From Caulobacteraceae bacterium (GTDB taxonomy: Bacteria > Pseudomonadota > Alphaproteobacteria > Caulobacterales > Aquidulcibacteraceae), in NCBI GenBank assembly GCA_009773335.1, contig WRPF01000024.1, forward strand, positions 1 through 38,929: a stretch of 38,929 bases of DNA, written 5' to 3'. Of the stretch, positions 756-38,929 are shown one piece after another. The notes under the pieces were generated by a model. That model was not told where the DNA came from, made no database searches, and saw only the letters and a program-made list of their open reading frames with translations. Numbering within the stretch: position 1 is the first letter of the stretch; the number at the start of each line of letters is the position of its first letter. Position numbers and translations under genes: made by a program.

Positions 756-826
756 TTTCGCCACCCCTGTCCTCCGCGAAGGGGAGAGAGGGAGACGGCG
801 CGCGCAAAGCGAACTAAGACACGCCC

Positions 827-1189: not shown

Positions 1190-2172
1190 AGACCGTCGAG
1201 ACAATCACCATCGCGGAAGAGGAGGGCGAGGTCCGCCTCGACCGCTGGTTCCACCGCCACTTCCCGCATCTGACTCAAGGCCAGATCGGCAAGATGATCC
1301 GCACCGGACAGGTGCGCGTCGACGGCGCCCGCGCGAAGGAAAACGACCGGGTGCGGCCGGGTCAGACGGTGCGTGTCCCGCCGTTGCCGGAAGAAAAGGA
1401 ACGCGTCGAGCGCGTCACGATCACCGATGAGGAAATCGCCTTTGTGCGCGGCCTCGTGATCTTCAAGGACGACGACGTCCTCGTGCTGAACAAGCCTGCA
1501 GGCCTTCCCGTGCAGGGCGGCATGAAGACCGGCCGTCACCTCGACCTGCTGATGGACGGCCTCAAGTTCGAGTACGACGCGAAACCCAAACTCGTGCACC
1601 GCCTCGACCGCGACACGTCGGGCTGCCTCGTGCTCGCACGCACGCCGCGCGCGGCCGCTGCGATGGCGAAATCCTTCAAGAGCCGCGAGACGACGAAGAT
1701 CTACTGGGCCGTCGTGCTCGGCTGTCCGCGCCCCGCCGAAGGCGAGATCCGCGGCTGGCTCAAGAAATCGACGGGGCCGCTCGACGGCGACCGCGAGATG
1801 GTGCGCCAGGCCAAACACGGCGAGAAGGACGCGCTGTTTGCGATCACCGAGTACGTGACGATTTCGGAAGCCTATCCGCGCGCGGCCTGGATGGCGCTGA
1901 AGCCGATCACCGGGCGCACCCACCAGTTGCGCTTCCACATGGCCGGCATCGGTCATGCCATCCTCGGCGATCCGAAATACAAGTGCGACCGCGAAACGCC
2001 CGGCGCGCTGAGCGAACGCATGCACCTGCACGCCCGCGCCATCGAGATCCCGCACCCCGTGAAAGGCCTCGTGCGCGCCATCGCGCCGCTGCCGCCGCAC
2101 ATGAAGAAGACCTTCGACTCCCTCGGCTTCGTCGAGGGCGAGGCGAAGGACCCGTTCAAGTCGATGAAGTAG
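1186..2172 (+). CDS. rluC: RluC-type 23S rRNA pseudouridine synthase
   Basis: The 328-residue product has an N-terminal S4 RNA-binding domain (about residues 15-65, with LDRWFHRHFPHLTQGQI), then a RluA-family catalytic domain. The catalytic motif HRLDRDTSG places the nucleophilic aspartate at about residue 141. The C-terminal part carries GRTHQLRFHMA, GDPKY and RMHLHARAIEIPHP. The S4 plus RluA layout and the length fit RluC/RluD enzymes, which modify uridines of 23S rRNA; the neighbourhood (crcB before, HAD phosphatase and ATP12 after) fits the alphaproteobacterial RluC locus. ATG 1186 is chosen over longer in-frame extensions because it overlaps the crcB stop (ATGA) and begins the S4 domain correctly. 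Confidence 0.93.
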   Translation: MKTVETITIAEEEGEVRLDRWFHRHFPHLTQGQIGKMIRTGQVRVDGARAKENDRVRPGQTVRVPPLPEEKERVERVTITDEEIAFVRGLVIFKDDDVLVLNKPAGLPVQGGMKTGRHLDLLMDGLKFEYDAKPKLVHRLDRDTSGCLVLARTPRAAAAMAKSFKSRETTKIYWAVVLGCPRPAEGEIRGWLKKSTGPLDGDREMVRQAKHGEKDALFAITEYVTISEAYPRAAWMALKPITGRTHQLRFHMAGIGHAILGDPKYKCDRETPGALSERMHLHARAIEIPHPVKGLVRAIAPLPPHMKKTFDSLGFVEGEAKDPFKSMK

Positions 2173-2180
2173 CCGGCAAG

Positions 2181-2537
2181 CTACTGCTCGCAGGCGACGC
2201 CATTGCCGTCCATGTCGTGGTGGCGCCAGTAGCCGGGCTGTCCGTAGCGCGCATTCGCGACGCCGAGCCTGTCGGCGAACGCGCAGTGCGGGGCGGCGGC
2301 GAAGTGCTTCAGCCCGACGACGGGATCGCTGTAGCCCAGCATGATCAGCCCGAAGCCCACGCCCGCGCCGATGACCGCCGCGATCATCGCCACGCGCAGG
2401 AGACGCCCCGTTTCAACGACAAGACCGCGCAGCAGGGCGAAGACGCCGCGACGTAACTCGCCGAGGCGATCATGGCGCGCGGCCATCCGGAACGATTCAT
2501 GGATCGCGCTGCGCTGCGCATTCTCGAAGATGGCCAT
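2181..2537 (-). CDS. Membrane-anchored protein with C-terminal Excalibur calcium-binding domain
   Basis: The product (118 residues) has a single hydrophobic segment about residues 45-68 (VAMIAAVIGAGVGFGLIML) and ends in an Excalibur domain: a cysteine in AAPHCAF, GQPGYWRHHDMDGNGVACE, with the D-x-D-x-D/N-G-x-A-C-E calcium loop at the C-terminus. Such domains are extracytoplasmic and occur in surface proteins and nucleases. No nuclease domain is present here, so the function is unknown. The start at 2537 is preferred over a longer frame to 2570 because an AGGGA-like ribosome-binding sequence lies about eight bases upstream. It converges with rluC, leaving only eight bases between the stops. 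Confidence 0.72.
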   Translation of the reverse strand: MAIFENAQRSAIHESFRMAARHDRLGELRRGVFALLRGLVVETGRLLRVAMIAAVIGAGVGFGLIMLGYSDPVVGLKHFAAAPHCAFADRLGVANARYGQPGYWRHHDMDGNGVACEQ

Positions 2538-2609
2538 CCGCGCGGTCCCTGCCCAGGTTGAACGGGGCAACCTAGCGCGTTCCGGCTAACGCTTGCCTAA
2601 GCCGCAGCG

Positions 2610-3095
2610 TTAACGCACGAGCGGGTCCGGACCGAAGCGGTTGTCGCCGTCCTGGCCGGCCAGGAACAGCACGATGACCGCGGTGCGCAGCACCATCAGC
2701 GCGCCGAGCACGAGAGCCATGATCGCGATCAGCCGGCCCGCATCTCCCGGCAGGAGGTTTTCCGCGTTCAGCATGAGCCAGGCGAGGCCGCCGAGAACCA
2801 CCAGCTTCCAGACCAGCAACATCCCGCCGAAGCCGCGATCGTGCAGGCGCTTGAGCACCATCATCGCACTCGCCCATGGCACGAGCACCAACACCGCCAG
2901 CACCAGCGGCCCGCCGACGATGTCGAGCGCCGGCTGCAGTGCGATCAGCTGGTCCGGCAGCACGACGGCGCCCCGCGCGGCGAGCGCCCGGTCGCCGAAA
3001 TACGCCGCCACGCCGAGGACGGCGAACGTCAGCACATAGCCGAGCCAGAGCCCCCTGCGGCTCACGCGCCCGGACGGCGACAGCAGAAATCCCAT
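2610..3095 (-). CDS. DUF805 family membrane protein (first copy)
   Basis: The 161-residue protein has the complete DUF805 plan: a short N-terminal segment (GFLLSPSGRVSRR), several membrane helices, the motif KRLHDRGFGG about residues 82-91, two further helices and the terminal GQDGDNRFGPDP. The family consists of small inner-membrane proteins without an assigned biochemical role. AGGAG lies nine bases before the ATG. A second DUF805 gene of different base composition lies directly upstream in the same orientation (3196-3732), separated by about 100 bases, so this is a tandem pair. Confidence 0.9.
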   Translation of the reverse strand: MGFLLSPSGRVSRRGLWLGYVLTFAVLGVAAYFGDRALAARGAVVLPDQLIALQPALDIVGGPLVLAVLVLVPWASAMMVLKRLHDRGFGGMLLVWKLVVLGGLAWLMLNAENLLPGDAGRLIAIMALVLGALMVLRTAVIVLFLAGQDGDNRFGPDPLVR

Positions 3096-3195
3096 TGAGT
3101 CAGGCTCCTACCCTGCGCCCCAATAGCCGCAAGGTGCATCGAGGTCACGACGCTTCCCTTGGACCATGAATTTGACCCCAAAAAGTCAGTTAGAC

Positions 3196-3732
3196 TTAAC
3201 CGACCGCCGGATCGGCGCTCTTGCTCAATGGGTCTGGCCCGTAGCGGTTTTCTCCCTTTCTGCCGGGCCAGAAGAGCATCAGCAGCCCGCCCCAAAAACC
3301 GACTAACGTTCCTGCGGCAACAACAGCAGAGATAAGAATCGTCGCCGATTGCCATTGGGTAGGGGGCGCAGCGAACACCAACTCCTTAGAGAAATGGATC
3401 GAGGCGAACAAGCCGACGTATGGCGCGATCCAAGTGGTCGCCGCAAACACTACCCCCCGCCCGACATCGTGAAGCCGCCGCAGGCCGGTCGCAAAAAGCG
3501 GCCACGCGGCGACAACAGTCAGCCCGATCTGCGCTGGCCCTTCGCCCAAGGTAAGGATGGCGCTCCGTATCAATTTCGATTGGACATGGTCTTCGAGCGT
3601 TGTGGTGAACTCGGGAAAGTACGCCCAGTCCAACCCGCCAGTAGCGACTCCCAGTCCAATGATTGGCAGCACCACGTAGAGCCAGTAACTCTCCCGGCTC
3701 ATGCGTCCCTTCGAACCAAACAGAAATCCCAC
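3196..3732 (-). CDS. DUF805 family membrane protein (second copy)
   Basis: The product has the same plan as the neighbouring copy: VGFLFGSKGRMSRESYW at the start, the motif LRRLHDVGRG, membrane helices and the terminal PGRKGENRYGPDP. I take the start as GTG 3732 (178 residues): a GGAGG sits eight bases before it, and it lines up with the start of the sister gene at 3095. An ATG at 3747 would add five residues but would place the ribosome-binding site inside the coding region. The gene is less GC-rich (about 57% in a hand-counted line) than its surroundings and differs clearly in sequence from the first copy, so independent acquisition is likelier than recent duplication. Confidence 0.85.
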   Translation of the reverse strand: MGFLFGSKGRMSRESYWLYVVLPIIGLGVATGGLDWAYFPEFTTTLEDHVQSKLIRSAILTLGEGPAQIGLTVVAAWPLFATGLRRLHDVGRGVVFAATTWIAPYVGLFASIHFSKELVFAAPPTQWQSATILISAVVAAGTLVGFWGGLLMLFWPGRKGENRYGPDPLSKSADPAVG

Positions 3733-3799
3733 GAAACACGCCTCCACATCGCCCGAATCGGTTGGTGAGTAGTCAGTTCAAGGAATGATGCAAACCTCC

Positions 3800-4462
3800 A
3801 TGTCAAAACTCGCCGTTTTCGATGTCGACGGCACCCTCGTCGACAGCCGCCGCTCCATCGCGGAGGCCATGGGATCGGCGTTCCGTTCGCTGAACCTGCC
3901 CGCGCCGGGCTATGACGAGACCCGCCGGATCGTGGGGCTGTCGCTGGAGCCGGCCATCGCCGTGCTGGCGCCCGATCTCGATCGCTCCCGCTATCCGGTG
4001 CTGGCGCAGGCCTACAAGGACGCGTTCGTGGCCAACCGCGACGCGGGTCTTGTGGAGCCGCTCTACGAGGGCGCGAAGGAAATCGTCACGGAACTGCGCG
4101 CGGCGGGCTGGCGGCTCGGCGTCGCCACCGGCAAGGCGCGGCGCGGCGTGGACGCCTTCCTCGAACGCCACGGCTTCGAGGGCCTTTTCGATGCCGCCTT
4201 CTGCGCCGACGACGGCCCCGGCAAACCCGACCCGCACATGCTTAACCTCGTCATCGAGGCCGTCGGCGCGCGCGCCGCCGACACCATCATGATCGGCGAC
4301 ACGAGCTTCGACATGGCGATGGCGCGCGCCGCTGACACGTATGCGCAGGGCGTGACGTGGGGCTTCCACACCGTGGAGGAAATCCAGTCGGGCGGCGCCC
4401 ACCACATCGCGGAAGACTTCGCGATCCTGCGCGCCGAGCTTGATCGCTGGGCAAACGGCTGA
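3800..4462 (+). CDS. HAD-IA family hydrolase (phosphoglycolate phosphatase-like)
   Basis: All HAD motifs are visible: motif I FDVDGTLVDS at the N-terminus (nucleophile and acid/base aspartates at about residues 8 and 10), motif II GVATGK, the lysine in GPGKPDPHML, and motif III IMIGDTSFDMAMA. The helical cap between motifs I and II is that of subfamily IA. The enzyme should dephosphorylate a small phosphorylated metabolite; the substrate is not determinable. In many alphaproteobacteria this gene lies between rluC and ATP12, and it does here once the minus-strand insert is discounted. ATGs at 3785 and 3788 would add a few residues (MMQTS); I chose 3800 because motif I then sits at the usual distance. 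Confidence 0.88.
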   Translation: MSKLAVFDVDGTLVDSRRSIAEAMGSAFRSLNLPAPGYDETRRIVGLSLEPAIAVLAPDLDRSRYPVLAQAYKDAFVANRDAGLVEPLYEGAKEIVTELRAAGWRLGVATGKARRGVDAFLERHGFEGLFDAAFCADDGPGKPDPHMLNLVIEAVGARAADTIMIGDTSFDMAMARAADTYAQGVTWGFHTVEEIQSGGAHHIAEDFAILRAELDRWANG

Positions 4463-24714: not shown

Positions 24715-28809
<4,095 letters not shown>

Positions 28810-29003
28810 CGCTCTCCCCGTTGGTCACATCCCGGTCGGCGCCGCCGAACCTTCCGGAATGCGACGCTGGTCGCCGCCTCGCCCGCTGTCGATGTCCCTT
28901 GCGGCAGGGACGAGTTCCGAGCATTCGGCTCGAACGGAGTTCCACGGGCGAGAAGAACTCCGGCGCGGAAACAAACAACCGCGCACGAGATAGAAACGCA
29001 TCA

Positions 29004-29034
29004 GGCCGAGCCGCGTTTGATGCGCGGCCCGGCC
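29004..29034 (-). promoter_or_regulatory. Hairpin in the rplL-rpoB intergenic region (attenuator-like)
   Basis: A 12-bp stem with a single G-U pair (29004-29015 and 29023-29034) and a seven-base loop lies 20 bases after the rplL stop. In many bacteria a partial terminator or processing site between rplL and rpoB lowers polymerase synthesis relative to ribosomal proteins; this hairpin is in the matching place. The T-run is weak, in line with partial read-through. The rest of the 244-base gap shows no promoter I trust. Confidence 0.6.
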
Positions 29035-29053
29035 CATGCGTCGGTCTTTCAGA

Positions 29054-29431
29054 TCAGGTCAGATCGACCTTGGCGCCGGCCTTTTCGAGCTGGGCCTTGA
29101 ACTTCTCGGCGTCAGCCTTGTTGACGCCTTCCTTGACTGCCTTCGGCGCGCCTTCAACCAGATCCTTGGCTTCCTTGAGGCCAAGGCCCGTGATTGCGCG
29201 CACTTCCTTGATGACTTCGATCTTCTTGTCGCCGGCGCCCGTGAGCATGACGGTGAATTCCGTCTTCTCTTCGACTGCCGCCGCGCCGCCGCCGGCCGCC
29301 GGAGCCGCCGCCACTGCAACCGGAGCTGCGGCGCTGACGCCCCACTTCTCTTCGAGCAGCTTGGAGAGCTCGGCCGCTTCGAGAACGGTCAGGCTGGAAA
29401 GGTCGTCGACGATTTTTTCGAGTTTGGACAT
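29054..29431 (-). CDS. rplL: 50S ribosomal protein L7/L12
   Basis: The 125-residue acidic protein is the ribosomal stalk protein that recruits translation factors. It has the N-terminal dimerisation helices ([19 protein letters not shown]), the alanine/glycine-rich hinge (residues 35-52) and the C-terminal factor-binding domain with [26 protein letters not shown] and the end KAGAKVDLT. It lies 69 bases downstream of rplJ, with which it forms the L10-L12 pair. Confidence 0.98.
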
Positions 29432-29500
29432 GTGGTTACACCCCTGAAGTTTTTCAACGTGGCGTTGCGAATACGACTGCTGCGGCCCAGAATTCTGGAT

Positions 29501-30016
29501 CTAGGCCGCGTCCTTGGTGGCGTAGGCGTTGATGACCCGTGCGAGCTGGCCGCCAGGCGCCGCGAGGACGCCAGCGATCTTGGTCGCGGGCGCCTGGATA
29601 AGGCCCACGATCTTGCCGCGCAGTTCATCGAGCGACGGAAGCGTCGCCAATGCCTTCACCGCGTTCTCGTTGAGAATGTCCGCGCCCATGATGCCGCCGA
29701 GCAGGACGAACTTGTCCTTCTCCTTGGCGTAGGCGACGGCGACCTTGGTGGCCGCCACGGAATCAGCGGAGTACGCGATGGCGACCGGACCGGTGAACAT
29801 GCCGGAACCCGCCGCGCCCGGCGTGCCGTCAAGAGCGATCTTGGCGAGCCGGTTCTTCACGACCTTGAGACTCGCGCCCGCCTCACGAAGGCGCACGCGA
29901 AGTGCAGTCATGTCCGCAACGGTCAATCCCGCATAGTGGCTGACAACCACCACGCCGGACTTGGCGAAGATCCCTTTCAGGTCCTCCACCGCTTGCGCTT
30001 TTTGAGCACGATCCAT
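29501..30016 (-). CDS. rplJ: 50S ribosomal protein L10
   Basis: L10 anchors the L7/L12 dimers to the ribosome and represses its own translation. The 171-residue product shows [47 protein letters not shown] and the C-terminal L12-binding helix. The start at 30016 follows GGAGA at five bases; a longer frame to 30241 would run into the leader. It is preceded by a long untranslated leader with its own promoter and a terminator behind rplA. Confidence 0.98.
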
Positions 30017-30340
30017 TGCGGTCTCCTCAATTCGGTCGCCGGCCCATCCGACGCCCGGACCGCGGGCGATAGATCCGCGCCGCGCACCGCTGCCGATCAC
30101 CTCGGAAGCGCCGCGCGACCCCGATGTCGCACGCGCCCCGTCCAGCCAATGAATTGGCCCAGCGCCTCGGTAGCGTAGCCCTCGCCCACGCTCGCGCGCG
30201 GGAAGGGGTGAAACCTTCAGCTCTGTCTCCTGCGGGCCCAAACGGTTTAAGCCCCGTGCTGACCGGCCTTGACCGACCGACGGGACACCTGCATTCTCGG
30301 ACAGGAATTCGGGCGGCGCAGTTAATGCGTCAACCCGAAC
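30017..30340 (-). ncRNA. Probable L10 leader (autoregulatory 5' untranslated region)
   Basis: Between the predicted rplJ promoter and the rplJ start lie about 320 bases without a gene. On the minus strand the segment contains GAGAATGCAGGTG, a GGGCTTAAAC/GTTTGGGCCC helix and CCCGCAGGAGACAGAG, which resembles the kink-turn site bound by L10 or the L10(L12)4 complex in other proteobacteria. Binding would block translation of rplJ and rplL. The assignment is from pattern memory and position. Confidence 0.55.
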
Positions 30341-30347
30341 GGCGGTC

Positions 30348-30376
30348 TATAGCGAGCCCTGCGCCATGTTGGCAAG
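30348..30376 (-). promoter_or_regulatory. Predicted promoter of rplJL-rpoBC
   Basis: On the minus strand CTTGCC (30371-30376) and GCTATA (30348-30353) are spaced by exactly 17 bases, close to the alphaproteobacterial housekeeping consensus CTTGAC-N17-CTATA. It lies between the rplKA terminator and the L10 leader. Confidence 0.65.
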
Positions 30377-30540
30377 GGCCTGTGCTGCATTTGCGTTCCG
30401 CCGCCCGCTGTTTTCCACAGTCTTGACGCAATCATCCCCAGCTCAGCGTGCTTGCGCCCCGCGCGCGGCAGGCCGGGCCGTTGCCGGTCCATGGTGAATC
30501 GGTGCGCGACGGCGCGGAAGCGGATCCGGGATCGAACAGG

Positions 30541-30570
30541 AAAAGACCGGCGCACCTCGCGATGCGCCGG
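30541..30570 (-). terminator. Intrinsic terminator after rplKA
   Basis: On the minus strand CCGGCGCA and TGCGCCGG (30563-30570 and 30547-30554) form an 8-bp stem with an eight-base loop, followed by TCTTTT. It separates rplKA from the rplJ transcription unit. The stretch 30377-30540 between this terminator and the rplJ promoter holds no gene. Confidence 0.85.
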
Positions 30571-30618
30571 ACCCTTCGGCATAGGCCTTGTTTCGCGGAC
30601 GTCAGCCCGCGCAGACTT

Positions 30619-31332
30619 TTAGGCTTGCGTCGCGCTCGAGGTATCGATGCGCACGCCGGGGCCCATGGTGGAGCTGAGCGCGATCTTCTTCACGAAGACG
30701 CCCTTCGCGCCGGACGGACGGGCTTTCGCGACGGAGTCGATGAAGGCGCGCGCGTTCTGGATGAGCGCATCCTTCGAGAAGCTCGCCTTGCCGACGCCGG
30801 CGTGGATGATGCCGGCCTTTTCGACGCGGAACTCCACGGCGCCGCCCTTGGCGTCCTTCACGGCCTTGCCGACGTCCATCGTCACGGTGCCGACCTTCGG
30901 GTTCGGCATCAGGCCGCGGGGCCCGAGCACCTTGCCGAGACGGCCGACGAGGGCCATCAGGTCGGGCGTGGCGATCAGGCGATCGAACTCGATCTTGCCG
31001 CCGTTGATCGTCTCGAACAGGTCCTGTTCGCCGACGATGTCTGCGCCGGCGGCCTTGGCTTCGTCAGCCTTCGGGCCCTTGGCGAACACGGCGACGCGCA
31101 GCGTCTTGCCGGTGCCGTTTGGCAGCTGGCACACGCCGCGGACCTGCTGGTCGGGATACTTCGGGTCGACGCCGAGGTTCATCGAGATTTCGATCGTCTC
31201 GTCGAACTTCGCCTGCGCGCGTTCCTTCAGCATGCCGATCGCCTCTTCCAGCGAGTGCAGCTTGCGGCTGTCGATTCCGGCATGGCTCTTGGCCATGCGC
31301 TTGGTGACGTTCACGCCATCAATCTTCGGCAT
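30619..31332 (-). CDS. rplA: 50S ribosomal protein L1
   Basis: L1 forms the mobile stalk at the tRNA exit site and represses translation of the rplKA mRNA. The 237-residue product has the typical opening [37 protein letters not shown], the signature [16 protein letters not shown] and [13 protein letters not shown]. The start is ATG 31332, four bases after the rplK stop, preceded by AGGA; longer frames run into rplK. Confidence 0.98.
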
Positions 31333-31336
31333 TGTC

Positions 31337-31783
31337 CTACCCCACCACTTCCAGGCCCATGGAACGGGCGGTGCCGGCGATCTGGAGCGCGGCGGCTTCA
31401 ATATCGTTGGCGTTGAGATCCTTCATCTTGGTTTTCGCGATCTCGCGGCACTGGGCCATCGAGACCTTGCCGACCTTGTCGCGTCCCGGCAGCTTCGATC
31501 CGCCGCCCGGCTTCTTGCCGAGCTTCAGACCCGCCGCCTTCTTCAGGAGGAAGGACGCCGGCGGCGTCTTGATGACGAAGGTGAAGGACTTGTCCTGATA
31601 GTAGGTGATGACCACCGGGCACGGATCGCCCTTGGTCATGTCCTGCGTGCGGGCGTTGAAGCCCTTGCAGAATTCCATGATGTTCAGACCGCGCTGACCG
31701 AGCGCGGGACCAATCGGGGGTGACGGGTTGGCCGCAGCCGCCGGCACCTGGAGCTTGATCTGCCCCATGACTTTCTTCGCCAT
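31337..31783 (-). CDS. rplK: 50S ribosomal protein L11
   Basis: L11 is part of the GTPase-associated centre of the large subunit. The 148-residue product has the proline-rich start region ([20 protein letters not shown]), [20 protein letters not shown] and the conserved C-terminal segment with [15 protein letters not shown] precedes the ATG. Normally nusG lies directly upstream; here about 4.5 kb of other genes intervene, and rplK has its own predicted promoter. Confidence 0.98.
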
Positions 31784-31861
31784 GTAAACCTCACAAAAAG
31801 GCGGAGGGTCGTGGTGCGGCCCGGCTGGACTTTGCCGGAACCTCCCACGGAAGACCGGGGC

Positions 31862-31890
31862 GTATAGGGGAGGACGGGGACGTTGTCACT
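31862..31890 (-). promoter_or_regulatory. Predicted promoter of rplKA
   Basis: On the minus strand AGTGAC (31885-31890) and CTATAC (31862-31867) are separated by 17 bases, about 80 bases before the rplK start. A dedicated promoter is expected here because nusG is far away. Confidence 0.5.
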
Positions 31891-31908
31891 ACCCGTCGCC
31901 GTTCGGCG

Positions 31909-31960
31909 GCCCTGGGGTATGCCCTGGGCGGCACGCCTGCCCCAATGAATACCCCAGGGC
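31909..31960. repeat. Inverted repeat upstream of the rplK promoter
   Basis: GCCCTGGGGTAT (31909-31920) is repeated as its exact complement at 31949-31960, and an overlapping second pair (GTATGCCCTGGG at 31917-31928 and its complement at 31953-31964) gives an alternative fold. The element ends 18 bases before the -35 box. It could be a protein-binding site, a transcript end for the small upstream gene, or just a repeat. Confidence 0.55.
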
Positions 31961-32037
31961 ATACGCCGGCGCCCGCGGAACCGTTTCTGTAAAAACGACG
32001 CCGCGTCGGGCCTGCCAGCGATGGAAACGAACGCACG

Positions 32038-32382
32038 TCAGCAGCGCGCGGGCGACGACCTCCCGGGCGCACGAGCCCTGAAGGGGGCCTTTACGGGAGC
32101 CTTTGCGGGGGCCTTTACGGGAGCATGGCGCGAGGCCCGCCCCTTGGCGCCGCGCGCAGGGAAAAAAGAGACAAAGGCCCGCTCACACAACGGACCCGGC
32201 GCGCGCGACGCATGAAAAGAGGACCGCCGGACGCCGGCGCCGCGCGAGGTCTCACGACGGGGAGCGCCTACGCGCCGCGCCGGCCCGCACGCGCCCTTGG
32301 CGAGGACCGGACGCGCCGACACCGCCTGCCACAGCAGGAGCCCTCCGACCGCCAGAACCAACACCACAAGACACGCGAACAC
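32038..32382 (-). CDS. Small putative membrane protein with K-A-P repeats
   Basis: The frame encodes 114 residues: an N-terminal hydrophobic helix (residues 2-24, FACLVVLVLAVGGLLLW), then a basic, low-complexity region ending in alternating APVKAPAKAPVKAP. GTG 32382 follows a GGAGG at six bases, which is the main support for it being a gene. I recognise no family. It lies upstream of rplK on the same strand and is divergent from the restriction-modification gene. The repeat part derives from a 12-bp tandem DNA repeat. It could be a leader-type spurious frame. Confidence 0.45.
   Translation of the reverse strand: MFACLVVLVLAVGGLLLWQAVSARPVLAKGACGPARRVGAPRRETSRGAGVRRSSFHASRAPGPLCERAFVSFFPARGAKGRASRHAPVKAPAKAPVKAPFRARAPGRSSPARC
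32087..32122. repeat. 12-bp tandem repeat, three units
   Basis: GCCTTTACGGGA, GCCTTTGCGGGG and GCCTTTACGGGA follow each other directly; a fourth unit is degenerate. On the minus strand each unit encodes four residues of the K-A-P-V/A repeat of the small membrane protein, so copy-number changes keep the frame. Confidence 0.8.
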
Positions 32383-32550
32383 GGCTGACCTCCGTCAAAA
32401 CCTGACGCCTTTGTTCCCTTTTTGTTCCGTTGCTTCAAGTGACAATATGGAAAGGTTCGGGGCGACCCAGGCTCTCGGTCCGAACCGGCGCCGACCCGTT
32501 CCCGTCCGCCCCCGCCCCCTCTAAGGTGCGAGCCGGTCGAGGGGGTGCGG

Positions 32551-35346
32551 GTGCGGCTCAGTTGGAACGAAATCAGAGTGCGGGCGAAGGCCTTCGCCGA
32601 CGAGTGGGCGAGCGAGACCTACGAGCACGGCGAGGCCAAGAGCTTCTACGACGACCTCTTTCAGGTGTTCGGAGCCCGCCGACGCGGCTCAGCCAGCTTC
32701 GAGGCGCGGGTCAAATTGGCGGGCGCCCGCAACGGTCGGATCGACCTCTTCTGGCCCCGGGTTCTGGTGGCCGAACACAAGAGCGCCGGCGGCGATCTCA
32801 TCCGCGCCCGCGATCAGGCCGTGAACTACCTGACCGGCATCAAGAACGAGGAACTGCCCCGCTACATCCTCGTCTGCGATTTCCAGACCTTCGATCTCCT
32901 CAATCTGGAGACTGGCGACAACGCGGTGTTCACCCTCGCGGACCTTCCGAAGCACGTCGAGAAATTCGGCTTCATCATCGGCGTCGAGAAGCGCACGTTC
33001 CGGGATCAGGACCCCGTCAACATCCTCGCCGCCGAGCTGATGGGCAAACTTCACGATGCGCTGGAAGCGTCGGGCTACACCGGCCACGATCTCGAACGAC
33101 TGCTGGTGCGCCTGCTGTTCTGCCTGTTCGCGGACGACACGGGCATATTCGAGCCGCGCGGCATCATGGAGGACCTGATCCGCACCCGCACAAGCGAGGA
33201 CGGCGCCGACACCGGGCAATGGCTGGCCAACCTGTTTCAGGTACTGGACACGCCCAAGGACAAGCGGCTGAAAAACCTGGACGAGGACCTCGCCCAGTTT
33301 GACTACATCAACGGCAACCTGTTCGCCGAGCGCCTGCCGATTGCGCAGTTCGACGCAAAGATGCGAGCGCTGCTTCTGGAAGCATGCAGTTTCAACTGGG
33401 ATGCAATCTCCCCGGCCATTTTCGGCTCCCTTTTCCAGTTCGTCATGGCGCCGGTGGAACGCCGAAAGGAAGGCGCGCACTACACAAACGAAAAGTGCAT
33501 TCTCAAAGTCATCGAGCCGCTGTTCCTTGATGATCTGCGTGCGGAGTTCGCGCATATCAGCGGCCTCAAGCGAGATCGCGACAACCGCCTGCGCGCGTTC
33601 CACGACAAGTTGGCCAGGCTGACCTTCTTCGACCCCGCTTGCGGATGCGGCAACTTCCTCGTCATCGCCTACCGCGAAATTCGCGCCATCGAGATCGAAT
33701 TGCTGAAGCTGCTTTACGCGGATATCTACAACCGGCCCGGCTACACGCGATCCGACTTCAAGTTCAACGTCGGCTCGCTGACGAAACTGAGCGTCGATCA
33801 GTTCTACGGCATCGAACTGGGCGAATTTCCTGCGCGCATCGCCGAAGTCGCGCTCTGGATGATGGATCACATCATGAACGGCCGGCTCTCCATTGAGTTC
33901 GGCGAGAACTACGCCCGCATCCCCTTGCGCCAGTCGCCGCACATCAAGCACGGCGATGCACTGGAAGTGGATTGGGAAACGGTACTGCCCGCCGAGCAAT
34001 GCAGCTATGTGATGGGCAATCCGCCGTTCATCGGCGCCAAGATGCAGAGCGAGGCGCAGCGCGCGCAGGTGCGCCGCATCGCCGATCTCGGCGGGTCCGG
34101 CGGCACGCTCGACTATGTGGCGGCGTGGTTCATCAAGGCGGGTGAATATGCCAAGGGCGGAACACCGCGCATCGCATTCGTTTCCACCAATTCGATCACG
34201 CAAGGCGAACAGGTGGCGCAGCTCTGGCCGGTGCTGTTCGACCACTGCGGACTGGAGATCGCCTTCGCACACCGCACGTTTGCATGGGAAAGCGAGGCCC
34301 GCGGCAAGGCGCACGTGCACGTGGTGGTGCTGGGCCTGACGCGCGCGGACGATGAGCCGAAGGATAAACGACTCTTCTCCTACGACGACATCAAAAGCGA
34401 TCCCGTAGAGAGCCGGCACGCGGGGCTTTCACCGTATCTGCTTGATGCGAGCAGACTGGCTGATCGCCACTTAGTAATTCTTGGTGCCGCATCTCCTCCC
34501 CGACACTTGGCCTCGCTCTACAATGGGAACATCGCCGCTGACGGCGGCAGCCTTGTATTTGAAGAGTCAGAACGGCTGAGAATATTGGATGCGGAACCCG
34601 ATCTGGCTGATCTGATTCATGAGTTCCTGGGAGCAGAGGATTTGATCCAAGGCAGCACGCGTTACTGCCTTTGGCTCGTCGACTGCCCGCTAACCCGCCA
34701 GTCGAGCAGCCTCGTGCTAAGACAAAAACTTCATGCCGTGCGAACCATGAGGCTAGCAAGCACCAAGGCCGCCACACGCGATAAGGCCAACTCACCTGCG
34801 CTCTTCACCGAACGCCGACAACCAACAGAGGGACGCTACCTAGCAATTCCTCGCACCAGTTCCGAGCGGCGCCCCTACATACCGATGAAATTTCTCAGCG
34901 CGAACGTGATAGCCGCAAACGATTTGCAGATTGTTCCGAACGCCACGCTCGGCAACTTCGCACTTTTGACCTCGCGCATGCACATGGCTTGGATAGAGAT
35001 AACTTCGGGCAGGCTAAAAAGCGATGTTCGCTACTCGGCGAAGTTTACACACAATACCTTTCCAACGCCCGATACCCCCAGCTTGAGCAACTTGGAGCAT
35101 CCCGCCCAAGCCATTCTTGACGCCCGCGCCGCGCACCCCAACGCCACGCTCGCCGATCTGTACGACCCCGATCTCATGCCCGCCGACCTGCGCAATGCGC
35201 ACCGCGATCTCGATCTGGCGGTGGACAGGCTCTATCGCCGCGAGCCGTTCGACAGCGACCGCGCGCGGGTGGAGCACCTGTTCGGGCTCTACGAAAATCT
35301 CGCCGCGCCGCTGATCGCGGCGTCGCGGGCGAAACGGAAGAAATAG
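32551..35346 (+). CDS. MmeI-like type IIL restriction-modification enzyme (nuclease-methyltransferase fusion)
   Basis: One 931-residue chain carries restriction and adenine methylation, as in MmeI. The N-terminal domain (LSWNEIRVRAKAFADEWASE, then RIDLFWPRVLVAEHKSAG) contains D-X9-E-X-K at about Asp65, Glu75 and Lys77, the same spacing as the MmeI nuclease. A helical spacer follows. The methyltransferase domain has motif I DPACGCGNFL (about residue 361) and the catalytic motif IV NPPF (about 490). Target recognition (about 630-850) and a C-terminal helical domain complete the chain. GTG 32551 has GAGGGG six bases upstream and gives the usual LSWNEI start; GTG 32545 is the alternative. Such enzymes need no separate modification gene. 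It lies opposite to the ribosomal operon. Confidence 0.93.
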   Translation: MRLSWNEIRVRAKAFADEWASETYEHGEAKSFYDDLFQVFGARRRGSASFEARVKLAGARNGRIDLFWPRVLVAEHKSAGGDLIRARDQAVNYLTGIKNEELPRYILVCDFQTFDLLNLETGDNAVFTLADLPKHVEKFGFIIGVEKRTFRDQDPVNILAAELMGKLHDALEASGYTGHDLERLLVRLLFCLFADDTGIFEPRGIMEDLIRTRTSEDGADTGQWLANLFQVLDTPKDKRLKNLDEDLAQFDYINGNLFAERLPIAQFDAKMRALLLEACSFNWDAISPAIFGSLFQFVMAPVERRKEGAHYTNEKCILKVIEPLFLDDLRAEFAHISGLKRDRDNRLRAFHDKLARLTFFDPACGCGNFLVIAYREIRAIEIELLKLLYADIYNRPGYTRSDFKFNVGSLTKLSVDQFYGIELGEFPARIAEVALWMMDHIMNGRLSIEFGENYARIPLRQSPHIKHGDALEVDWETVLPAEQCSYVMGNPPFIGAKMQSEAQRAQVRRIADLGGSGGTLDYVAAWFIKAGEYAKGGTPRIAFVSTNSITQGEQVAQLWPVLFDHCGLEIAFAHRTFAWESEARGKAHVHVVVLGLTRADDEPKDKRLFSYDDIKSDPVESRHAGLSPYLLDASRLADRHLVILGAASPPRHLASLYNGNIAADGGSLVFEESERLRILDAEPDLADLIHEFLGAEDLIQGSTRYCLWLVDCPLTRQSSSLVLRQKLHAVRTMRLASTKAATRDKANSPALFTERRQPTEGRYLAIPRTSSERRPYIPMKFLSANVIAANDLQIVPNATLGNFALLTSRMHMAWIEITSGRLKSDVRYSAKFTHNTFPTPDTPSLSNLEHPAQAILDARAAHPNATLADLYDPDLMPADLRNAHRDLDLAVDRLYRREPFDSDRARVEHLFGLYENLAAPLIAASRAKRKK

Positions 35347-35388
35347 TAGACCCGTTGACAGCCCCCGTCCGCCGCGCCGAGTAGCGCG

Positions 35389-36249
35389 ATGGCGCGCATT
35401 CTCATCCCCCTGCCGCAACGCGACTTCGATCCGACCGAGGCGGCCGTGCCGTGGCGCATCCTGTCGCGCGCCGGGCACGACATCACGTTCGCCACCCCGG
35501 ACGGACGGCCGGCGGCGGCCGATCCGGTCATGGTCACTGGCGTCGGGCTCGACCCGTGGGGCTTCCTGCCGATGGTGCGCGGACTGGTGCTCTTCGGCCG
35601 CATCCTGCGCGCCGACCCGCGCGGGCGCGCGGCCTACGCCGAGATGATCGCGAGCCGGGCCTTCCAGGCCCCGATCGCGTGGGACGCGATCGATCCCGAC
35701 GCGTTCGACGGGCTCGTGCTCCCCGGCGGACACCGGGCGCGCGGCATGCGCGAATTTCTCGAAAGCAAGGTGTTGCAGCGCGTCGCGACGGCGTTCTTCC
35801 GCGCGCAAAAACCTGTCGGCGCGATCTGTCATGGCGTGTTGCTGCTCGCGCGCAGCATAGATGACACGACCGGATGCTCGGTGCTCTGGGGGCGCAGGAC
35901 GACGGCGCTGACGTGGCGGCTCGAACGGAAGGGCAATGCGATGGGCAATGCCTTGCGCTTCTGGGACCGCGACTATTACCGGACCTACCGCGAGGCGGCG
36001 GGCGAGCCACCGGGCTTCATGTCGGTGGAACAGGAGGTCACGCGCGCGCTGAAGGCGCCGTCCGATTTCCTCGACGCCGACGCGCACACGCTCAAGGGAA
36101 AGCGCAAGCTCTCCGGACTGGCGCGGGACTCCGAGACGGATGCGTCGCCCGCGTTCGTCGTGCAGGACGGCGTCTATGTTTCGGCACGGTGGCCCGGCGA
36201 CGCGCACACGTTCGCAAACACGTTCGCGGCGCTCTTCAAATCAGGTTGA
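35389..36249 (+). CDS. DJ-1/PfpI family (type 1 glutamine amidotransferase-like) protein
   Basis: The 286-residue protein has the DJ-1/PfpI fold: ARILIPLPQRDFDPTEAAVP at the N-terminus with an acidic residue in the usual region, GLVLPGGHRARGMREF, and the nucleophile elbow VGAICHGVLLLARS with the reactive cysteine followed by His. Members act as glyoxalases, peptidases or stress chaperones; this long form with a helical insertion (about residues 55-90) resembles hypothetical DJ-1 homologues of unknown activity. It stands 42 bases after the restriction-modification gene on the same strand and converges with nusG 24 bases away, so it shares the insertion with that gene. Confidence 0.88.
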   Translation: MARILIPLPQRDFDPTEAAVPWRILSRAGHDITFATPDGRPAAADPVMVTGVGLDPWGFLPMVRGLVLFGRILRADPRGRAAYAEMIASRAFQAPIAWDAIDPDAFDGLVLPGGHRARGMREFLESKVLQRVATAFFRAQKPVGAICHGVLLLARSIDDTTGCSVLWGRRTTALTWRLERKGNAMGNALRFWDRDYYRTYREAAGEPPGFMSVEQEVTRALKAPSDFLDADAHTLKGKRKLSGLARDSETDASPAFVVQDGVYVSARWPGDAHTFANTFAALFKSG

Positions 36250-36273
36250 TCGTTGTGCGGGAGCCGATGGGCC

Positions 36274-36810
36274 TCAGCGCATCTTCTCCACCTGCGCGTA
36301 TTCCAGGTCCACGGGCGTCGCGCGGCCGAAGATGGAGACGGCGACCTTCAGGCGGCCCTTTTCCTCCTCGACCTCTTCCACGAGGCCCTCGAAGGACTGG
36401 AACGGGCCATCGGTCACCCGCACGCGCTCGCCGATGTCGAACGAGATCACCGGGCGCGGACGCGAGGCGGCGGCCTGCTCCACTTCGCCGAGGATGCGTT
36501 TGACTTCCGTGTCGCTGACCGGCTGCGGCCGGTTCTGCTGGCCGAGGAAGCCCGTGACCTTCGGCGTGTTCTTGACGAGGTGATAGGCCTCGTCGGTCAT
36601 GTCCATCTTTACGAGGACGTAGCCGGGGAAGTGCCGCTGCTCGCGGATCTTCTTCTTGTTGCGGACGATCTCGGTGACCTCTTCGGTCGGCACGCGGATG
36701 TCCTCGAAGGCTTCTTCAAGCCCCTGCCGCGCCGCCTGGTCGCGGATCGCCTCGGCGACCTTCTTCTCGAAGTTCGAGTAGGCGTGAACGATGTACCAGT
36801 GATGCGCCAT
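36274..36810 (-). CDS. nusG: Transcription termination/antitermination factor NusG
   Basis: NusG binds RNA polymerase and couples it to Rho or the ribosome. The 178-residue product has the NGN domain (HHWYIVHAYSNFEKKVAEAI, FPGYVLVKMDMTDEAYHLVK) and the C-terminal KOW domain (IGERVRVTDGPFQSFEGLVE). It is 13 bases after secE. Its 3' neighbour is the convergent DJ-1-like gene instead of rplK. Confidence 0.98.
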   Translation of the reverse strand: MAHHWYIVHAYSNFEKKVAEAIRDQAARQGLEEAFEDIRVPTEEVTEIVRNKKKIREQRHFPGYVLVKMDMTDEAYHLVKNTPKVTGFLGQQNRPQPVSDTEVKRILGEVEQAAASRPRPVISFDIGERVRVTDGPFQSFEGLVEEVEEEKGRLKVAVSIFGRATPVDLEYAQVEKMR

Positions 36811-36823
36811 GTCGGTTCAGAAC

Positions 36824-37069
36824 TCAGGAGGGCAGGATGAAGCCGATAGCCCAGCGGATGAGGGCGTCGACGATGAAGAAGAAGATGGCGGCCGCCGCGA
36901 CCATGATCATGACCATGATCGTCGAGACGGTGACTTCCTGACGGGTCGCCCAGGTCACGCGCTGACCTTCCTGGCGGACCTGACGGAAGAACTCGAAGGG
37001 GTTCTTGGCCTTCAGGCGCTCGCTGCCGGGGGTTGGGCTGTCGTCGCGATCGTCCGTCGTACTGGCCAT
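36824..37069 (-). CDS. secE: Preprotein translocase subunit SecE
   Basis: SecE is the small essential clamp subunit of the SecYEG channel. The 81-residue product is the single-membrane-span form: a charged N-terminus, NPFEFFRQVRQEGQRVTWAT, TRQEVTVSTIMVMIM and one hydrophobic helix. ATG 37069 follows AGGACAGGTA and gives the normal length; longer frames are not supported. Confidence 0.96.
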   Translation of the reverse strand: MASTTDDRDDSPTPGSERLKAKNPFEFFRQVRQEGQRVTWATRQEVTVSTIMVMIMVAAAAIFFFIVDALIRWAIGFILPS

Positions 37070-37140
37070 TACCTGTCCTTCACGTGGAATGCCGCCGGCA
37101 GTCCGGCGCACTCCCTCAAATAGTCACTCACACGGGCCGA

Positions 37141-37216
37141 TGGCAGGGGCGGAGGGACTCGAACCCACGACACCCGGTTTTGGAGACCGGTACTCTACCA
37201 GCTGAGCTACACCCCT
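37141..37216 (-). tRNA. tRNA-Trp (anticodon CCA)
   Basis: On the minus strand the acceptor stem AGGGGTG/CGCCCCT, D arm with AGCTCAGCTGGTAGAG, anticodon stem CCGGT/ACCGG with loop CTCCAAA (anticodon CCA) and T arm GGTTCGAGTCC form a full cloverleaf with encoded CCA. It precedes secE as in most bacteria. Confidence 0.98.
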
Positions 37217-37276
37217 ATCGCTGACGGATATGATCCGGCAGCGGGCGGTCGCCTTCGGCTCTTTGCGAAGCAGGGC

Positions 37277-37305
37277 TTATGCCCGAGCGTCTTTCCCTCG
37301 GCAAG
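37277..37305 (-). promoter_or_regulatory. Predicted promoter of tRNA-Trp-secE-nusG
   Basis: On the minus strand CTTGCC (37300-37305) and GCATAA (37277-37282) are 17 bases apart, about 60 bases before the tRNA. The -35 box is identical to the one predicted for rplJ. Confidence 0.6.
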
Positions 37306-37330
37306 GCCGCTCGCAGCCCCGCATGCGAAA

Positions 37331-37354
37331 CGGTCCCGGCGCAAACCGGGACCG
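37331..37354 (-). terminator. Terminator after the DUF2807 gene
   Basis: CGGTCCCGG and CCGGGACCG form a perfect 9-bp stem with a six-base loop, followed on the minus strand by TTTCGC. It separates the DUF2807 gene from the tRNA-Trp promoter. Confidence 0.75.
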
Positions 37355-37385
37355 TTCTTCCTGGACCGGGGCGCGGCGACCCCGC

Positions 37386-38414
37386 TCAGTCTATCGTGAT
37401 CGGCCCGACGTGCACGGATCCCGAGCCCATCACCGCCTTCTGCACGCCGCCGGCGACCGAGACGACCTGCACGTCGCCCGAACCCATGATGCTGGCGTCC
37501 ACCGCCGCCGCCGGGCCGCGCACGGTCACGTCGCCGGAACCCATGATCGCCACCTCAAGCCGGCCGACGCCCGATGCGATGTCCACGCTGCCGGAGCCGG
37601 CGATCGAGATGTCCGCATCGGCGACCGCGCCGCCCGAGATCAACACGTCGCCGGAGCCTGCGATCGAGACCTCCAGCGGTCCGGTGAGCGAGGCCGCGGT
37701 CACGTCGCCAGACCCGGCGACGGACACTTCGAGCTTTTCGCCCACTGCGCCGAGGGTCGTGTCGCCGGAGCCCGCCGCCGACACCGACGCCGACTTCGTC
37801 GCGCCGACGGTCACGTCGCCGGACCCGGCCGAATTCAGGTCAAGCGCGCCCGCCACGTCCGCCACGGTCGTGGGGCCGCATCCCGTGAACGCGAGATCGG
37901 CGCTGGCGGAGGGGCCGACGTCCGTCCGCGCCGCGCCGCCGACGGAGAGATCGACCGCGCGCGGCACACGCGCCGTGATGACCGGCATCTCCGCCTCGTC
38001 CACCTCGCCGACGCCGTTGACGGAGACTTCAAACTTGCCCAGCCGCGTGTTGCAGTGGCGGATGCGGCGATCGAGGCCGCCGTCCACCACCAGCACGCCG
38101 CCGTCCATCCGCACCCGCGGCATGGCGAGGGCGCCCGGATTGGCGATCTCGATGGAAATGTCCGCGCGGTCTTCCGGCAGGATCTTCACCACCGCGACGG
38201 CGTCGCGGATCTTCAGTTCCGTGGCGGCGTAGGTCGTGGCGGCGATGTTTGTCGCCACCCCGGAGCCCTTGGCCTGCGCCGGCCCGCCCCCGCCGCCCCG
38301 GTCGCCGATCTCGAACCGGAAACCCTCGCCATCGCTCACGCCATGGCCGAAATAGCCGCCTACGGCGATCAGGACCGCCACTGTCACCGCCGCACCAATC
38401 ACGAACCGCTCCAT
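37386..38414 (-). CDS. Head-GIN (DUF2807) domain protein, membrane-anchored
   Basis: The 342-residue product has one N-terminal membrane helix ([20 protein letters not shown]), a glycine-rich linker and a long repetitive domain in which AGSGDV/MGSGDV recurs about every 20 residues, as in DUF2807 putative auto-transporter adhesin/head-GIN proteins that fold as a beta-helix. Four cysteines at most are present (for example RHCNTRL, TGCGPTT). The family's role is unknown; it often goes with PspC-domain proteins. ATG 38414 has GGAGG seven bases upstream; longer frames lack it. The gene sits between tuf and tRNA-Trp in the same orientation but with its own terminator. Confidence 0.88.
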
Positions 38415-38525
38415 CTTCTGCCTCCCGCCTGGTCCGAACGCACGTTCGCGCCCTTGCCGGCATTCAGGAACGGGATGCGGCCGGGGGCGTGTCTGGATGC
38501 ACCCTAGACCGGAAAAGACCACAAT

Positions 38526-38558
38526 TGAAAAAGGCCGCCGGGTCGCCCCGACGGCCTT
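38526..38558 (-). terminator. Terminator after tuf
   Basis: On the minus strand AAGGCCG-T-CGGG and CCCG-G-CGGCCTT form a GC-rich stem with loop GCGA, followed by a run of T. It lies about 25 bases after the tuf stop. Confidence 0.9.
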
Positions 38559-38583
38559 CTGTCTGTGCGAGGAGGCTTTGGGC

Positions 38584-38929
38584 CTACTCGATGATCTTGG
38601 CCACGACGCCGGAGCCCACGGTGCGGCCGCCTTCGCGGATGGCGAAGCGCAGGCCCTGGTCCATGGCGATCGGGGTGATCAGCTCGACGGTGATTTTGAT
38701 GTTGTCGCCCGGCATCACCATCTCCACGCCTTCCGGCAGGTTGCAGATGCCGGTCACGTCGGTGGTGCGGAAGTAGAATTGCGGACGGTAGTTGGTGAAG
38801 AACGGCGTGTGCCGGCCGCCTTCGTCCTTGGTGAGGATGTAGGCTTCGGCCTCGAACTTCTTGTGCGGCTTGATGGAGCCGGGCTTCGCCAGCACCTGGC
38901 CGCGCTCGACGCCTTCACGGTCGATGCCG
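38584..38929 (-). CDS. tuf: Elongation factor Tu, C-terminal fragment (partial at window edge)
   Basis: The open frame enters from the right edge and encodes about the last 115 residues of EF-Tu: [67 protein letters not shown] and the terminal [14 protein letters not shown]. This covers domain 3 and the end of domain 2. EF-Tu delivers aminoacyl-tRNA to the ribosome. The GTPase domain is outside the window. Confidence 0.98.

What the first reader, a model, noticed from the sequence alone, without database searches (positions are those of the whole stretch)
32551..36249. Type IIL restriction-modification gene and a DJ-1-like gene inserted between nusG and rplK
In most bacteria secE-nusG-rplK-rplA are contiguous. 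Here about 4.5 kb separate nusG from rplK, and two opposite-strand genes, an MmeI-like bifunctional enzyme with intact D-X9-E-X-K, motif I and NPPF, and a DJ-1/PfpI protein, occupy it. This placement splits an essential operon, so the locus is protected against simple loss by recombination across it. The DJ-1-like gene, 42 bases downstream on the same strand, may be a cargo or an accessory of the restriction system, which would be new.
Basis: partly seen in the sequence, partly recalled or inferred. Interest (0 to 1): 0.75.

Follow-up and report, generated by a model that had tools for sequence, protein, structure and literature searches.

The report
Variable gene pocket beside rplK operon

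Summary
In detail: 4,490 bases between nusG and rplK hold an intact MmeI-type (Type IIL) restriction-modification gene and a DJ-1/PfpI-like gene. Most of the interpretation does not. (1) The gap is old and shared: in a supported clade of 30 genomes, 23 of 24 measurable gaps are 1.0-14.9 kb, one is 189 bp; cargo varies (TonB receptors and lipid enzymes recur; caspase-like and Uma2 genes in some). secE-nusG and rplK-rplA stay tight. (2) No essential operon shields the insert: a promoter-like element and leader directly before rplK are conserved, and in nine relatives nusG and rplK lie far apart. (3) The DJ-1-like gene is not linked to the enzyme: 0 of 19 enzyme neighbourhoods examined hold it, 0 of 13 DJ-1 neighbourhoods hold the enzyme. 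(4) The spacer before rplK holds a small gene behind a LexA (SOS) box: 9 copies in this genome, 9 in one congener, none detected in 99 other relatives. All 18 share box, ribosome site, GTG start, one hydrophobic helix, basic tail and terminator-like motif; no credible database match. This family is the novel part; its function is inferred only.

The parts
36274..36810 (-). nusG, core gene at one border of the interval
   Evidence: ORF; homologs in 94 of 101 genomes
35389..36249 (+). DJ-1/PfpI (ThiJ-like) protein, 286 aa, convergent with nusG; AICHG motif
   Evidence: homologs in 8 of 101 (E<=1e-10) and 17 of 348 genomes (E<=1e-30), window genome included
32551..35346 (+). MmeI-type Type IIL restriction-methylation enzyme, about 931 aa (ORF open from 32545)
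   Evidence: homologs at E<=1e-100 in 22 of 348 genomes, window genome included
32413..32427 (-). LexA (SOS) box GAAC-N7-GAAC, 30 nt before the small gene's start and 123 nt before the RM start on the other strand
   Evidence: lexA and ruvB of the same genome carry the same box type
32038..32382 (-). 114-aa small gene, hydrophobic N-terminal helix and basic tail; one of 9 paralogs found in the genome
31996..32008 (-). terminator-like hairpin with T run after the small gene
   Evidence: a GGCGTCG plus T-rich motif starts 32-49 nt after the stop in 18 of 18 copies, one mismatch allowed
31809..31890 (-). rplK upstream region: promoter-like TGACAA / CTATAC (read by eye) and leader with CGTGG...CCACG
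   Evidence: alignment of rplK upstream regions; homology to the congener G002 resumes here
31337..31783 (-). rplK, core gene at the other border of the interval
   Evidence: ORF; homologs in 94 of 101 genomes

Best explanation
The nusG-rplK junction is a variable pocket that opened in an ancestor of this clade of Hyphomonadaceae/Terricaulis-like Alphaproteobacteria; different genes come and go there while the two flanking core gene groups stay put. SHOWN: the gap is long in nearly all measurable clade members, cargo differs among them including within the genus, and both core borders are conserved. In this genome the pocket holds three separate units. (a) A Type IIL enzyme that by family knowledge methylates adenine in an asymmetric site and cuts unmethylated DNA about 20 bases away; INFERRED from sequence. 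Its site should end in A-G, because K825/D827 stand where the pair specifying G at position 6 stands in MmeI relatives. (b) A DJ-1/PfpI-like protein, probably a small-molecule or glycation-repair enzyme (INFERRED), not part of the restriction system. (c) A small gene with a LexA box in its promoter region, hence INFERRED to be switched on by DNA damage, making a single-helix membrane protein with a basic tail; by analogy with SidA, TisB or DinQ it may arrest division or weaken the membrane. How cargo enters is INFERRED: no flanking repeats were found and no integrase was seen among the families displayed, so homologous recombination through the flanking core genes is most likely.
For: Gap positions over 101 genomes and named loci. 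Controls: in 28 clade-like named loci plus the window, nusG-rplK is >=1 kb in 18 of 19 measurable, secE-nusG in 0 of 29, rplK-rplA in 0 of 18; in 52 other loci nusG-rplK is >=1 kb in 2. Tree: clade of 30 with support 100. Cargo of 105 interval proteins: TonB receptors 24, LPG_synthase_C 10, acyl-CoA dehydrogenases 6, TetR 6, Uma2 5. Congener G002: homology to the window ends at the nusG end and resumes about 90 bases before rplK, with caspase-domain and Uma2-cluster genes on its contig ends. RM identity; K/D rule from passages of PMC4833311. Small gene.
Against: Entry by homologous recombination is not shown. The check for integrases saw only the 25 commonest of 93 Pfam families and of 36 PHROG families. 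Many genomes are MAGs; in 5 of the 30 clade members nusG and rplK are on different contigs and in 1 rplK was not on the fetched stretch. The tree rests on two short proteins and on rows I chose. The generic sigma-70 scan found no promoter anywhere in 31500-37300, so not the rplK pair either; that pair rests on conservation alone. For the small gene pN 0.274 is close to pS 0.326, so protein-level selection is weak, and no expression data exist.
Confidence: 0.8

Rival explanations
1. The RM gene and the DJ-1-like gene form one mobile defence cassette, the DJ-1-like protein being an accessory of the enzyme.
For: Same strand, 42 bases apart. Both families occur in G050, which carries the highest-identity relative of each (76% over part of the RM, 63% DJ-1), and in G070.
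Against: 0 of 19 RM neighbourhoods hold DJ-1 and 0 of 13 DJ-1 neighbourhoods hold RM. In G050 they are on different contigs, in G070 about 176 kb apart. Co-occurrence is not clearly above chance (p 0.08 with, 0.25 without the window genome). Base composition differs: RM 0.56-0.65 GC, DJ-1 0.66-0.73. In three g11 genomes DJ-1 lies in a block with mltG-, yicC- and gmk-type genes. PADLOC gives no hit for DJ-1.
Confidence: 0.06
2. The nusG-rplK pocket is a defence hotspot and the RM enzyme is its typical cargo.
For: MmeI-like gene here; Uma2 (putative endonuclease fold) in 5 of 105 interval proteins.
Against: At E<=1e-10 PADLOC matches among the 105 only the candidate PDC-S03 (5 member-hits over four models) and one mad2; the commonest cargo is transport and lipid metabolism.
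Confidence: 0.05
3. The small-gene repeat is not a gene but a dispersed repeat or structured RNA whose open frame is incidental.
For: pS 0.326 and pN 0.274 are close, and codon position 3 varies hardly more than 1 and 2 (0.209 against 0.166 and 0.198). Terminator-like hairpins occur inside. GC-rich DNA is poor in stops.
Against: 18 of 18 copies keep box, ribosome site, GTG start, hydrophobic stretch and stop in one frame although spacers differ in length. AlphaFold gives a confident helix 2-22.
Confidence: 0.2
4. The RM gene is itself under LexA control, because it is divergent from the small gene and their starts are separated by a 168-base region that contains the box.
For: Box 32413-32427 lies 123 nt before the RM start.
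Against: None of the other 17 copies has an RM or DJ-1 gene on its 4.7-5.5 kb stretch; the juxtaposition may be chance. The promoter scan found nothing there.
Confidence: 0.1

Closest known systems
MmeI and the Type IIL restriction-modification family (PDB 5hr4; PMC4833311, passages seen)
   Same: Full-length single-chain nuclease-methyltransferase-TRD, all five MmeI Pfam domains, catalytic motifs intact.
   Different: TRD contact residues differ: N660/I663, R770 and K825/D827 replace MmeI Y642/K645, E751 and E806/R808, and D793 replaces A774 (N792 and R829 are kept); so probably a different site, ending in AG.
Chromosomal gene-transfer hotspots, many without mobile elements (PMC5635113, abstract and outline seen)
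   Same: One interval between fixed core genes with cargo turnover and no integrase among the families displayed.
   Different: Seen here across genera of a clade, between nusG and a ribosomal operon; recombination in the flanks not tested.
SidA, SOS-induced 29-aa inner-membrane division inhibitor of Caulobacter (PMC4211646, passages seen)
   Same: Small membrane protein behind a LexA box of type GTTC-N7-GTTC (same site on the other strand), same order.
   Different: 97-139 aa with a long basic tail, about nine copies per genome; SidA itself was not compared by sequence; no function shown.
TisB and DinQ of E. coli, SOS-controlled membrane peptides (DinQ: start of abstract of PMC3567139 in a listing; TisB recalled)
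   Same: LexA-controlled small membrane protein logic.
   Different: Multicopy; antisense RNA was not looked for; no sequence comparison made.
DJ-1/PfpI (ThiJ-like) superfamily
   Same: PF17124 and PF01965 over cut-off, AICHG motif.
   Different: 286 aa; far below the NCBIfam cut-offs, so exact activity unknown.

Membership tests
Type IIL (MmeI) restriction-modification | MmeI_N, helical spacer, N6-MTase, TRD and C domains in one chain | tested here: met
   all five over cut-off, 849 bits to MmeI
Type IIL (MmeI) restriction-modification | PD-(D/E)XK nuclease residues and MTase motifs I and IV | tested here: met
   D67-X9-E77-X-K79, PACGCGNF 364, GNPPF 491
Type IIL (MmeI) restriction-modification | adenine methylation of one strand of an asymmetric site and cutting about 20/18 nt away | not testable with these tools
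   needs methylome or assay
DJ-1/PfpI superfamily | domain match over cut-off with nucleophile Cys motif | tested here: met
   AICHG read in the ORF
HGT hotspot | variable gene content between fixed core genes in related genomes | tested here: met
HGT hotspot | elevated homologous recombination in flanking core genes | not tested
   needs many genomes of one species
LexA (SOS) regulon | LexA box of the host's own type before the gene | tested here: met
   18 of 18 copies; lexA and ruvB of the same genome too; consensus GTTCN7GTTC in PMC4211646
LexA (SOS) regulon | induction by DNA damage through LexA | not testable with these tools
   needs experiment
SidA/TisB/DinQ-like SOS membrane peptides | single membrane helix | tested here: met
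   Kyte-Doolittle 19-residue maximum 2.08-2.73 in 18 of 18; window copy: helix 2-22, pLDDT 90-95 in the first two blocks
SidA/TisB/DinQ-like SOS membrane peptides | match to a named protein family | tested here: not met
   5 copies scanned; best Pfam E 0.049 (Leu_leader, under its cut-off), best NCBIfam E 9.9; no direct comparison with SidA, TisB or DinQ was made

The most novel reading that the evidence does not exclude
The genus carries a dispersed, multicopy family (9 plus 9 copies in two species, not detected in a third) of complete mini-genes: LexA box, ribosome site, single-helix membrane protein with basic tail, terminator. They act together as a dosage-amplified DNA-damage effector that arrests division or depolarises the membrane. 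They move or turn over between species, and in this genome one copy shares a divergent control region with a Type IIL restriction gene, so restriction damage and the SOS effector could be coupled.
Probability: 0.3. Interest if true: 0.7.

Novelty: new variant of a known kind. Interest (0 to 1): 0.45.

Why it matters
It corrects a tempting reading: a familiar gene order does not lock an insert in place, and neighbours 42 bases apart need not work together. It marks the nusG-rplK junction as a clade-wide pocket of gene turnover with clear borders and one compact state. It also uncovers a multicopy SOS-box small-gene family; SOS membrane effectors known to me are single genes (recalled), so about nine copies in one genome would be a surprise, and it can be tested directly by DNA-damage transcriptomics.

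Tried and rejected
DJ-1 as RM accessory: rejected on linkage. Defence hotspot: rejected on cargo. Insertion by an element with terminal repeats: no repeat pair of 14 bases or more brackets the insert in the list shown (25 of 27 inverted pairs shown), and the tRNA-Trp of the window lies beyond secE. A Uma2 remnant in the window pocket: none at E<=0.01; three weak matches (E 7.6e-4 to 0.004) to ORFs of L134, L146 and L147 were not interpreted. Rfam at E<=0.5 gave only the tRNA in 28500-38929, so the rplK leader matches no listed family. Phages, plasmids and IMG/VR gave no relative of the small protein (the IMG/VR scan used one peptide pattern). AlphaFold of the DJ-1-like protein without an alignment failed (pLDDT 36.7) and is not used. 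Literature, listings only: nothing on a nusG-rplK insertion site is apparent in the titles and abstract starts of the 2 papers; nothing on this SOS family in those (6, 5 and 1 papers) and none found; no paper listed holds MmeI. Searches gave background only. The library lacks most subscription journals.

The first gene caller, trained on ribosomal genes, under-called and was replaced. The second still under-calls in lower-GC genomes, so linkage was re-tested with tblastn.
Full report
What is there. The interval between nusG (36274-36810, -) and rplK (31337-31783, -) is 4,490 bases. It holds a 931-933 aa ORF (32545/32551-35346, +) and a 286 aa ORF (35389-36249, +). The large ORF matches MmeI_N, MmeI_hel, MmeI_Mtase, MmeI_TRD and MmeI_C, all over cut-off, a Type IIG PADLOC model at 1093 bits, and MmeI (PDB 5hr4) at 849 bits. 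D67-X9-E77-X-K79, PACGCGNF and GNPPF are intact. The smaller ORF is a DJ-1/PfpI protein.

Whose genome. The window is contig C250 of a 4.04 Mb assembly in 285 contigs. The best NusG matches in named collections are MAGs labelled Alphaproteobacteria, Hyphomonadaceae, Caulobacterales or Terricaulis; NCBI places Terricaulis in Caulobacteraceae. The congener G002 appears to be the pond MAG E1_MAG_00003, by equal contig length.

Specificity of the enzyme. From the printed alignment with MmeI I read off by eye the contact positions named in PMC4833311 (passages seen). MmeI E806/R808 are K825/D827 here, and the paper says the K-D pair exclusively specifies G:C at position 6. T752 and L805, which specify the base opposite the methylated adenine, are kept as T771 and L824. 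E751 is R770, N773 is N792, A774 is D793, R810 is R829, Y642 is N660 and K645 is I663. The site should therefore end in AG; positions 1-4 I leave open.

The gap is not special to this genome. NusG and RplK were each found in 94 of 101 genomes. Seven genomes lack each, five of them both, including the congener G001, perhaps from missing contigs. I fetched 40 stretches covering intervals or interval ends and 20 chosen from other, mostly compact-gap genomes. A tree of NusG plus RplK for 56 of these genomes puts the window in a clade of 30 with support 100. Of these 30, window included, 24 have a measurable gap: 23 are 1,013-14,894 bases and one (G017) is 189. In five the two genes are on different contigs, and in one rplK was not on the stretch. 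Of 12 rows of the neighbouring branch, 9 are compact (112-210 bases), two open (G005, G008) and one not measurable. The 14 outgroup rows have 10 gaps of 89-274 bases and four of 667-4,062; they were picked partly because some were wide, so they are no rate estimate. In 28 clade-like named loci plus the window, nusG-rplK is >=1 kb in 18 of 19 measurable, against 0 of 29 for secE-nusG and 0 of 18 for rplK-rplA; in 52 other named loci it is >=1 kb in 2. Several named loci and handles seem to be the same genome, so the two sets overlap.

Cargo differs. ORFs in all fetched intervals fall into 67 clusters, 47 of them singletons, the two window genes among these. Of 105 proteins of 100 aa or more from 29 clade stretches, 24 are TonB receptors, 10 carry LPG_synthase_C, 6 are acyl-CoA dehydrogenases, 6 TetR, 5 fatty-acid hydroxylases and 5 Uma2. 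The two G012 stretches and L150 were left out of this count. TonB and lipid genes recur, so turnover is not complete. In the congener G002, homology to the window stops at the nusG end and resumes about 90 bases before rplK; its two contig ends carry a caspase-domain gene and a Uma2-cluster gene, and its genome has no match to the RM (E<=1e-30) or the DJ-1-like protein (E<=1e-10). At E<=1e-10 PADLOC finds only PDC-S03 candidates (5 member-hits) and one mad2, so the pocket is not a defence island. No integrase or transposase is among the 25 displayed of 93 Pfam and 36 PHROG families; the rest were not displayed.

No operon is held hostage. Upstream of rplK a promoter-like pair (TGACAA / CTATAC at about 31888-31862) and a leader with CGTGG...CCACG are seen. 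In the alignment the leader and part of the -10-like stretch reach over 70% agreement; the pair is weaker outside the clade. Against this, the generic sigma-70 scan found no promoter in 31500-37300 at all (0 found, 0.6 expected). In E. coli secE-nusG and rplKAJL-rpoBC are known as separate transcription units (recalled, not from a call). In nine relatives (G064, G071, G072, G076, G079, G083, G091, G095, G099) nusG and rplK lie on one contig 75 kb or more apart. Loss of the insert would not touch nusG or rplK, so the protection argument fails.

DJ-1 is a passenger. RM homologs (E<=1e-100) occur in 22 of 348 genomes and DJ-1 homologs (E<=1e-30) in 17 of 348; both in 3, expected 1.07, p 0.08; without the window genome 2, expected 0.97, p 0.25. 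Within about 6 kb, cut at contig ends, 0 of 19 RM regions (18 genomes) hold DJ-1 and 0 of 13 DJ-1 regions hold RM. These are the regions I fetched, not every homolog. In G050, G018 and G055 the DJ-1 gene lies in a shared block with mltG-, yicC- and gmk-type genes (Pfam run on the G050 genes). Against my reading: G050 holds the highest-identity relative of both genes (76% over part of the RM, 63% for DJ-1), though on different contigs and with its RM gene in pieces.

The overlooked gene. A DNA search of the own genome with the spacer 31880-32540 returned eight further places, their main pieces at 69-74% identity. Aligned, the nine copies share GAAC-N7-GAAC, a ribosome site, a GTG start, a hydrophobic N-terminus, a middle motif like ISRGAGVRRS...SRAPGPLCERA, a stop and a GGCGTCG-T run. 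There are two C-terminal types...PA[RH]C (window and L231-L234) and ...[LM]RA (L235-L238). An alignment search of 101 genomes found 9 copies in the window genome and 9 in G001, none in the third congener G002 or the other 98. For most genomes listed only the 45 best first-look candidates were scored, so distant copies may be missed. All 18 copies have a perfect box 29-32 nt before the start, a ribosome-site-like stretch, a hydrophobic stretch (maximum mean 2.08-2.73), a tail with net charge +7 to +20, and the terminator-like motif 32-49 nt after the stop, one mismatch allowed. In 17 copies the frame is kept through spacers of differing length, but pS 0.326 and pN 0.274 show weak protein-level constraint (L265 left out there because its start had been misplaced). 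AlphaFold of the window copy gives one confident helix, residues 2-22, and no other structure.

Is the box real? The Caulobacter LexA consensus is GTTCN7GTTC, the same site on the other strand (PMC4211646, legend passage). The window genome has 114 perfect sites against 62 for the backward control, so many single sites may be chance. Of 14 further sites that I picked by eye and fetched, one lies 54 nt before lexA and one 24 nt before ruvB. For the other 12 no SOS gene was recognised; of those, two candidate ORFs were scanned and gave no Pfam match. recA was not looked up. So it is the host's own LexA box type, and its fixed place in 18 of 18 copies is part of the family.

Mobility. Two of 9 window-genome sites share flanks with a G001 copy, 1.8 kb compared on each side; the window's own site could not be tested because G001 lacks nusG and rplK. 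At the L231 site, G001 keeps the flank to about 36 bases before the element and then lacks it together with the DNA beyond; G002 keeps the flank up to the element's edge and has no copy. At the L236 site, a tRNA-Thr leads into a small-gene copy in the window genome but into a different MmeI-like gene in G001. The copies thus seem to turn over. I did not look for terminal repeats at the copies and have not shown transposition.

Function. For the small gene I commit to a DNA-damage-induced membrane effector (about 0.45), most likely one that arrests division or lowers membrane potential, by analogy with SidA (29-aa inner-membrane protein that binds FtsW, PMC4211646 passages) and DinQ (PMC3567139, start of abstract in the listing). 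The box, the predicted helix and the copy number are shown; induction, membrane location and effect are inferred.

Verdict. As posed, the finding is a new member of the known Type IIL family plus an unlinked gene in a clade-wide variable pocket. What deserves follow-up is the multicopy LexA-box gene family found in the same interval.

Noticed in passing
L231-L238 and window (own genome), L257-L265 (G001): Eighteen copies of a LexA-box small membrane-protein gene in two congeners, none detected in the third; described in the report.
   Followed up: yes
L180, L184, L187, L197: In 4 of 19 MmeI-like regions (four genomes, three families, two of the genomes in one genus) a uvrB-type gene lies within about 1.3 kb (Pfam run on the L180 gene); a second possible preferred site.
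   Followed up: partly
L236:2397-2471 and L185:9085-9160: The same tRNA-Thr flank carries a small-gene copy in the window genome and an MmeI-like gene in G001.
   Followed up: partly
L180:8787-9647: An Mrr-type endonuclease gene (Mrr_N, Mrr_cat) follows the MmeI-like gene in G319, and a homolog follows it in G325.
   Followed up: no
window:31908-31973: A near-palindrome (CCCTGGG...CCCAGGG type) between the small gene and the rplK promoter-like region.
   Followed up: no
window:31809-31850: Conserved rplK leader with a CGTGG...CCACG stem, no Rfam match; possibly the L1 feedback site (recalled idea).
   Followed up: partly
L135:281-3637: Two related genes in the G002 pocket, the larger with a caspase domain (PF00656).
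   Followed up: no
L194 and L195 (G050): The highest-identity RM relative (76% over residues 3-540) lies in pieces on two contigs with a further frame break near residue 793.
   Followed up: no
L134 (G002), window about 31860-32030: A 205-aa ORF next to nusG in G002, without Pfam match, has a weak match (E 0.003) to the window DNA near the rplK upstream region.
   Followed up: no
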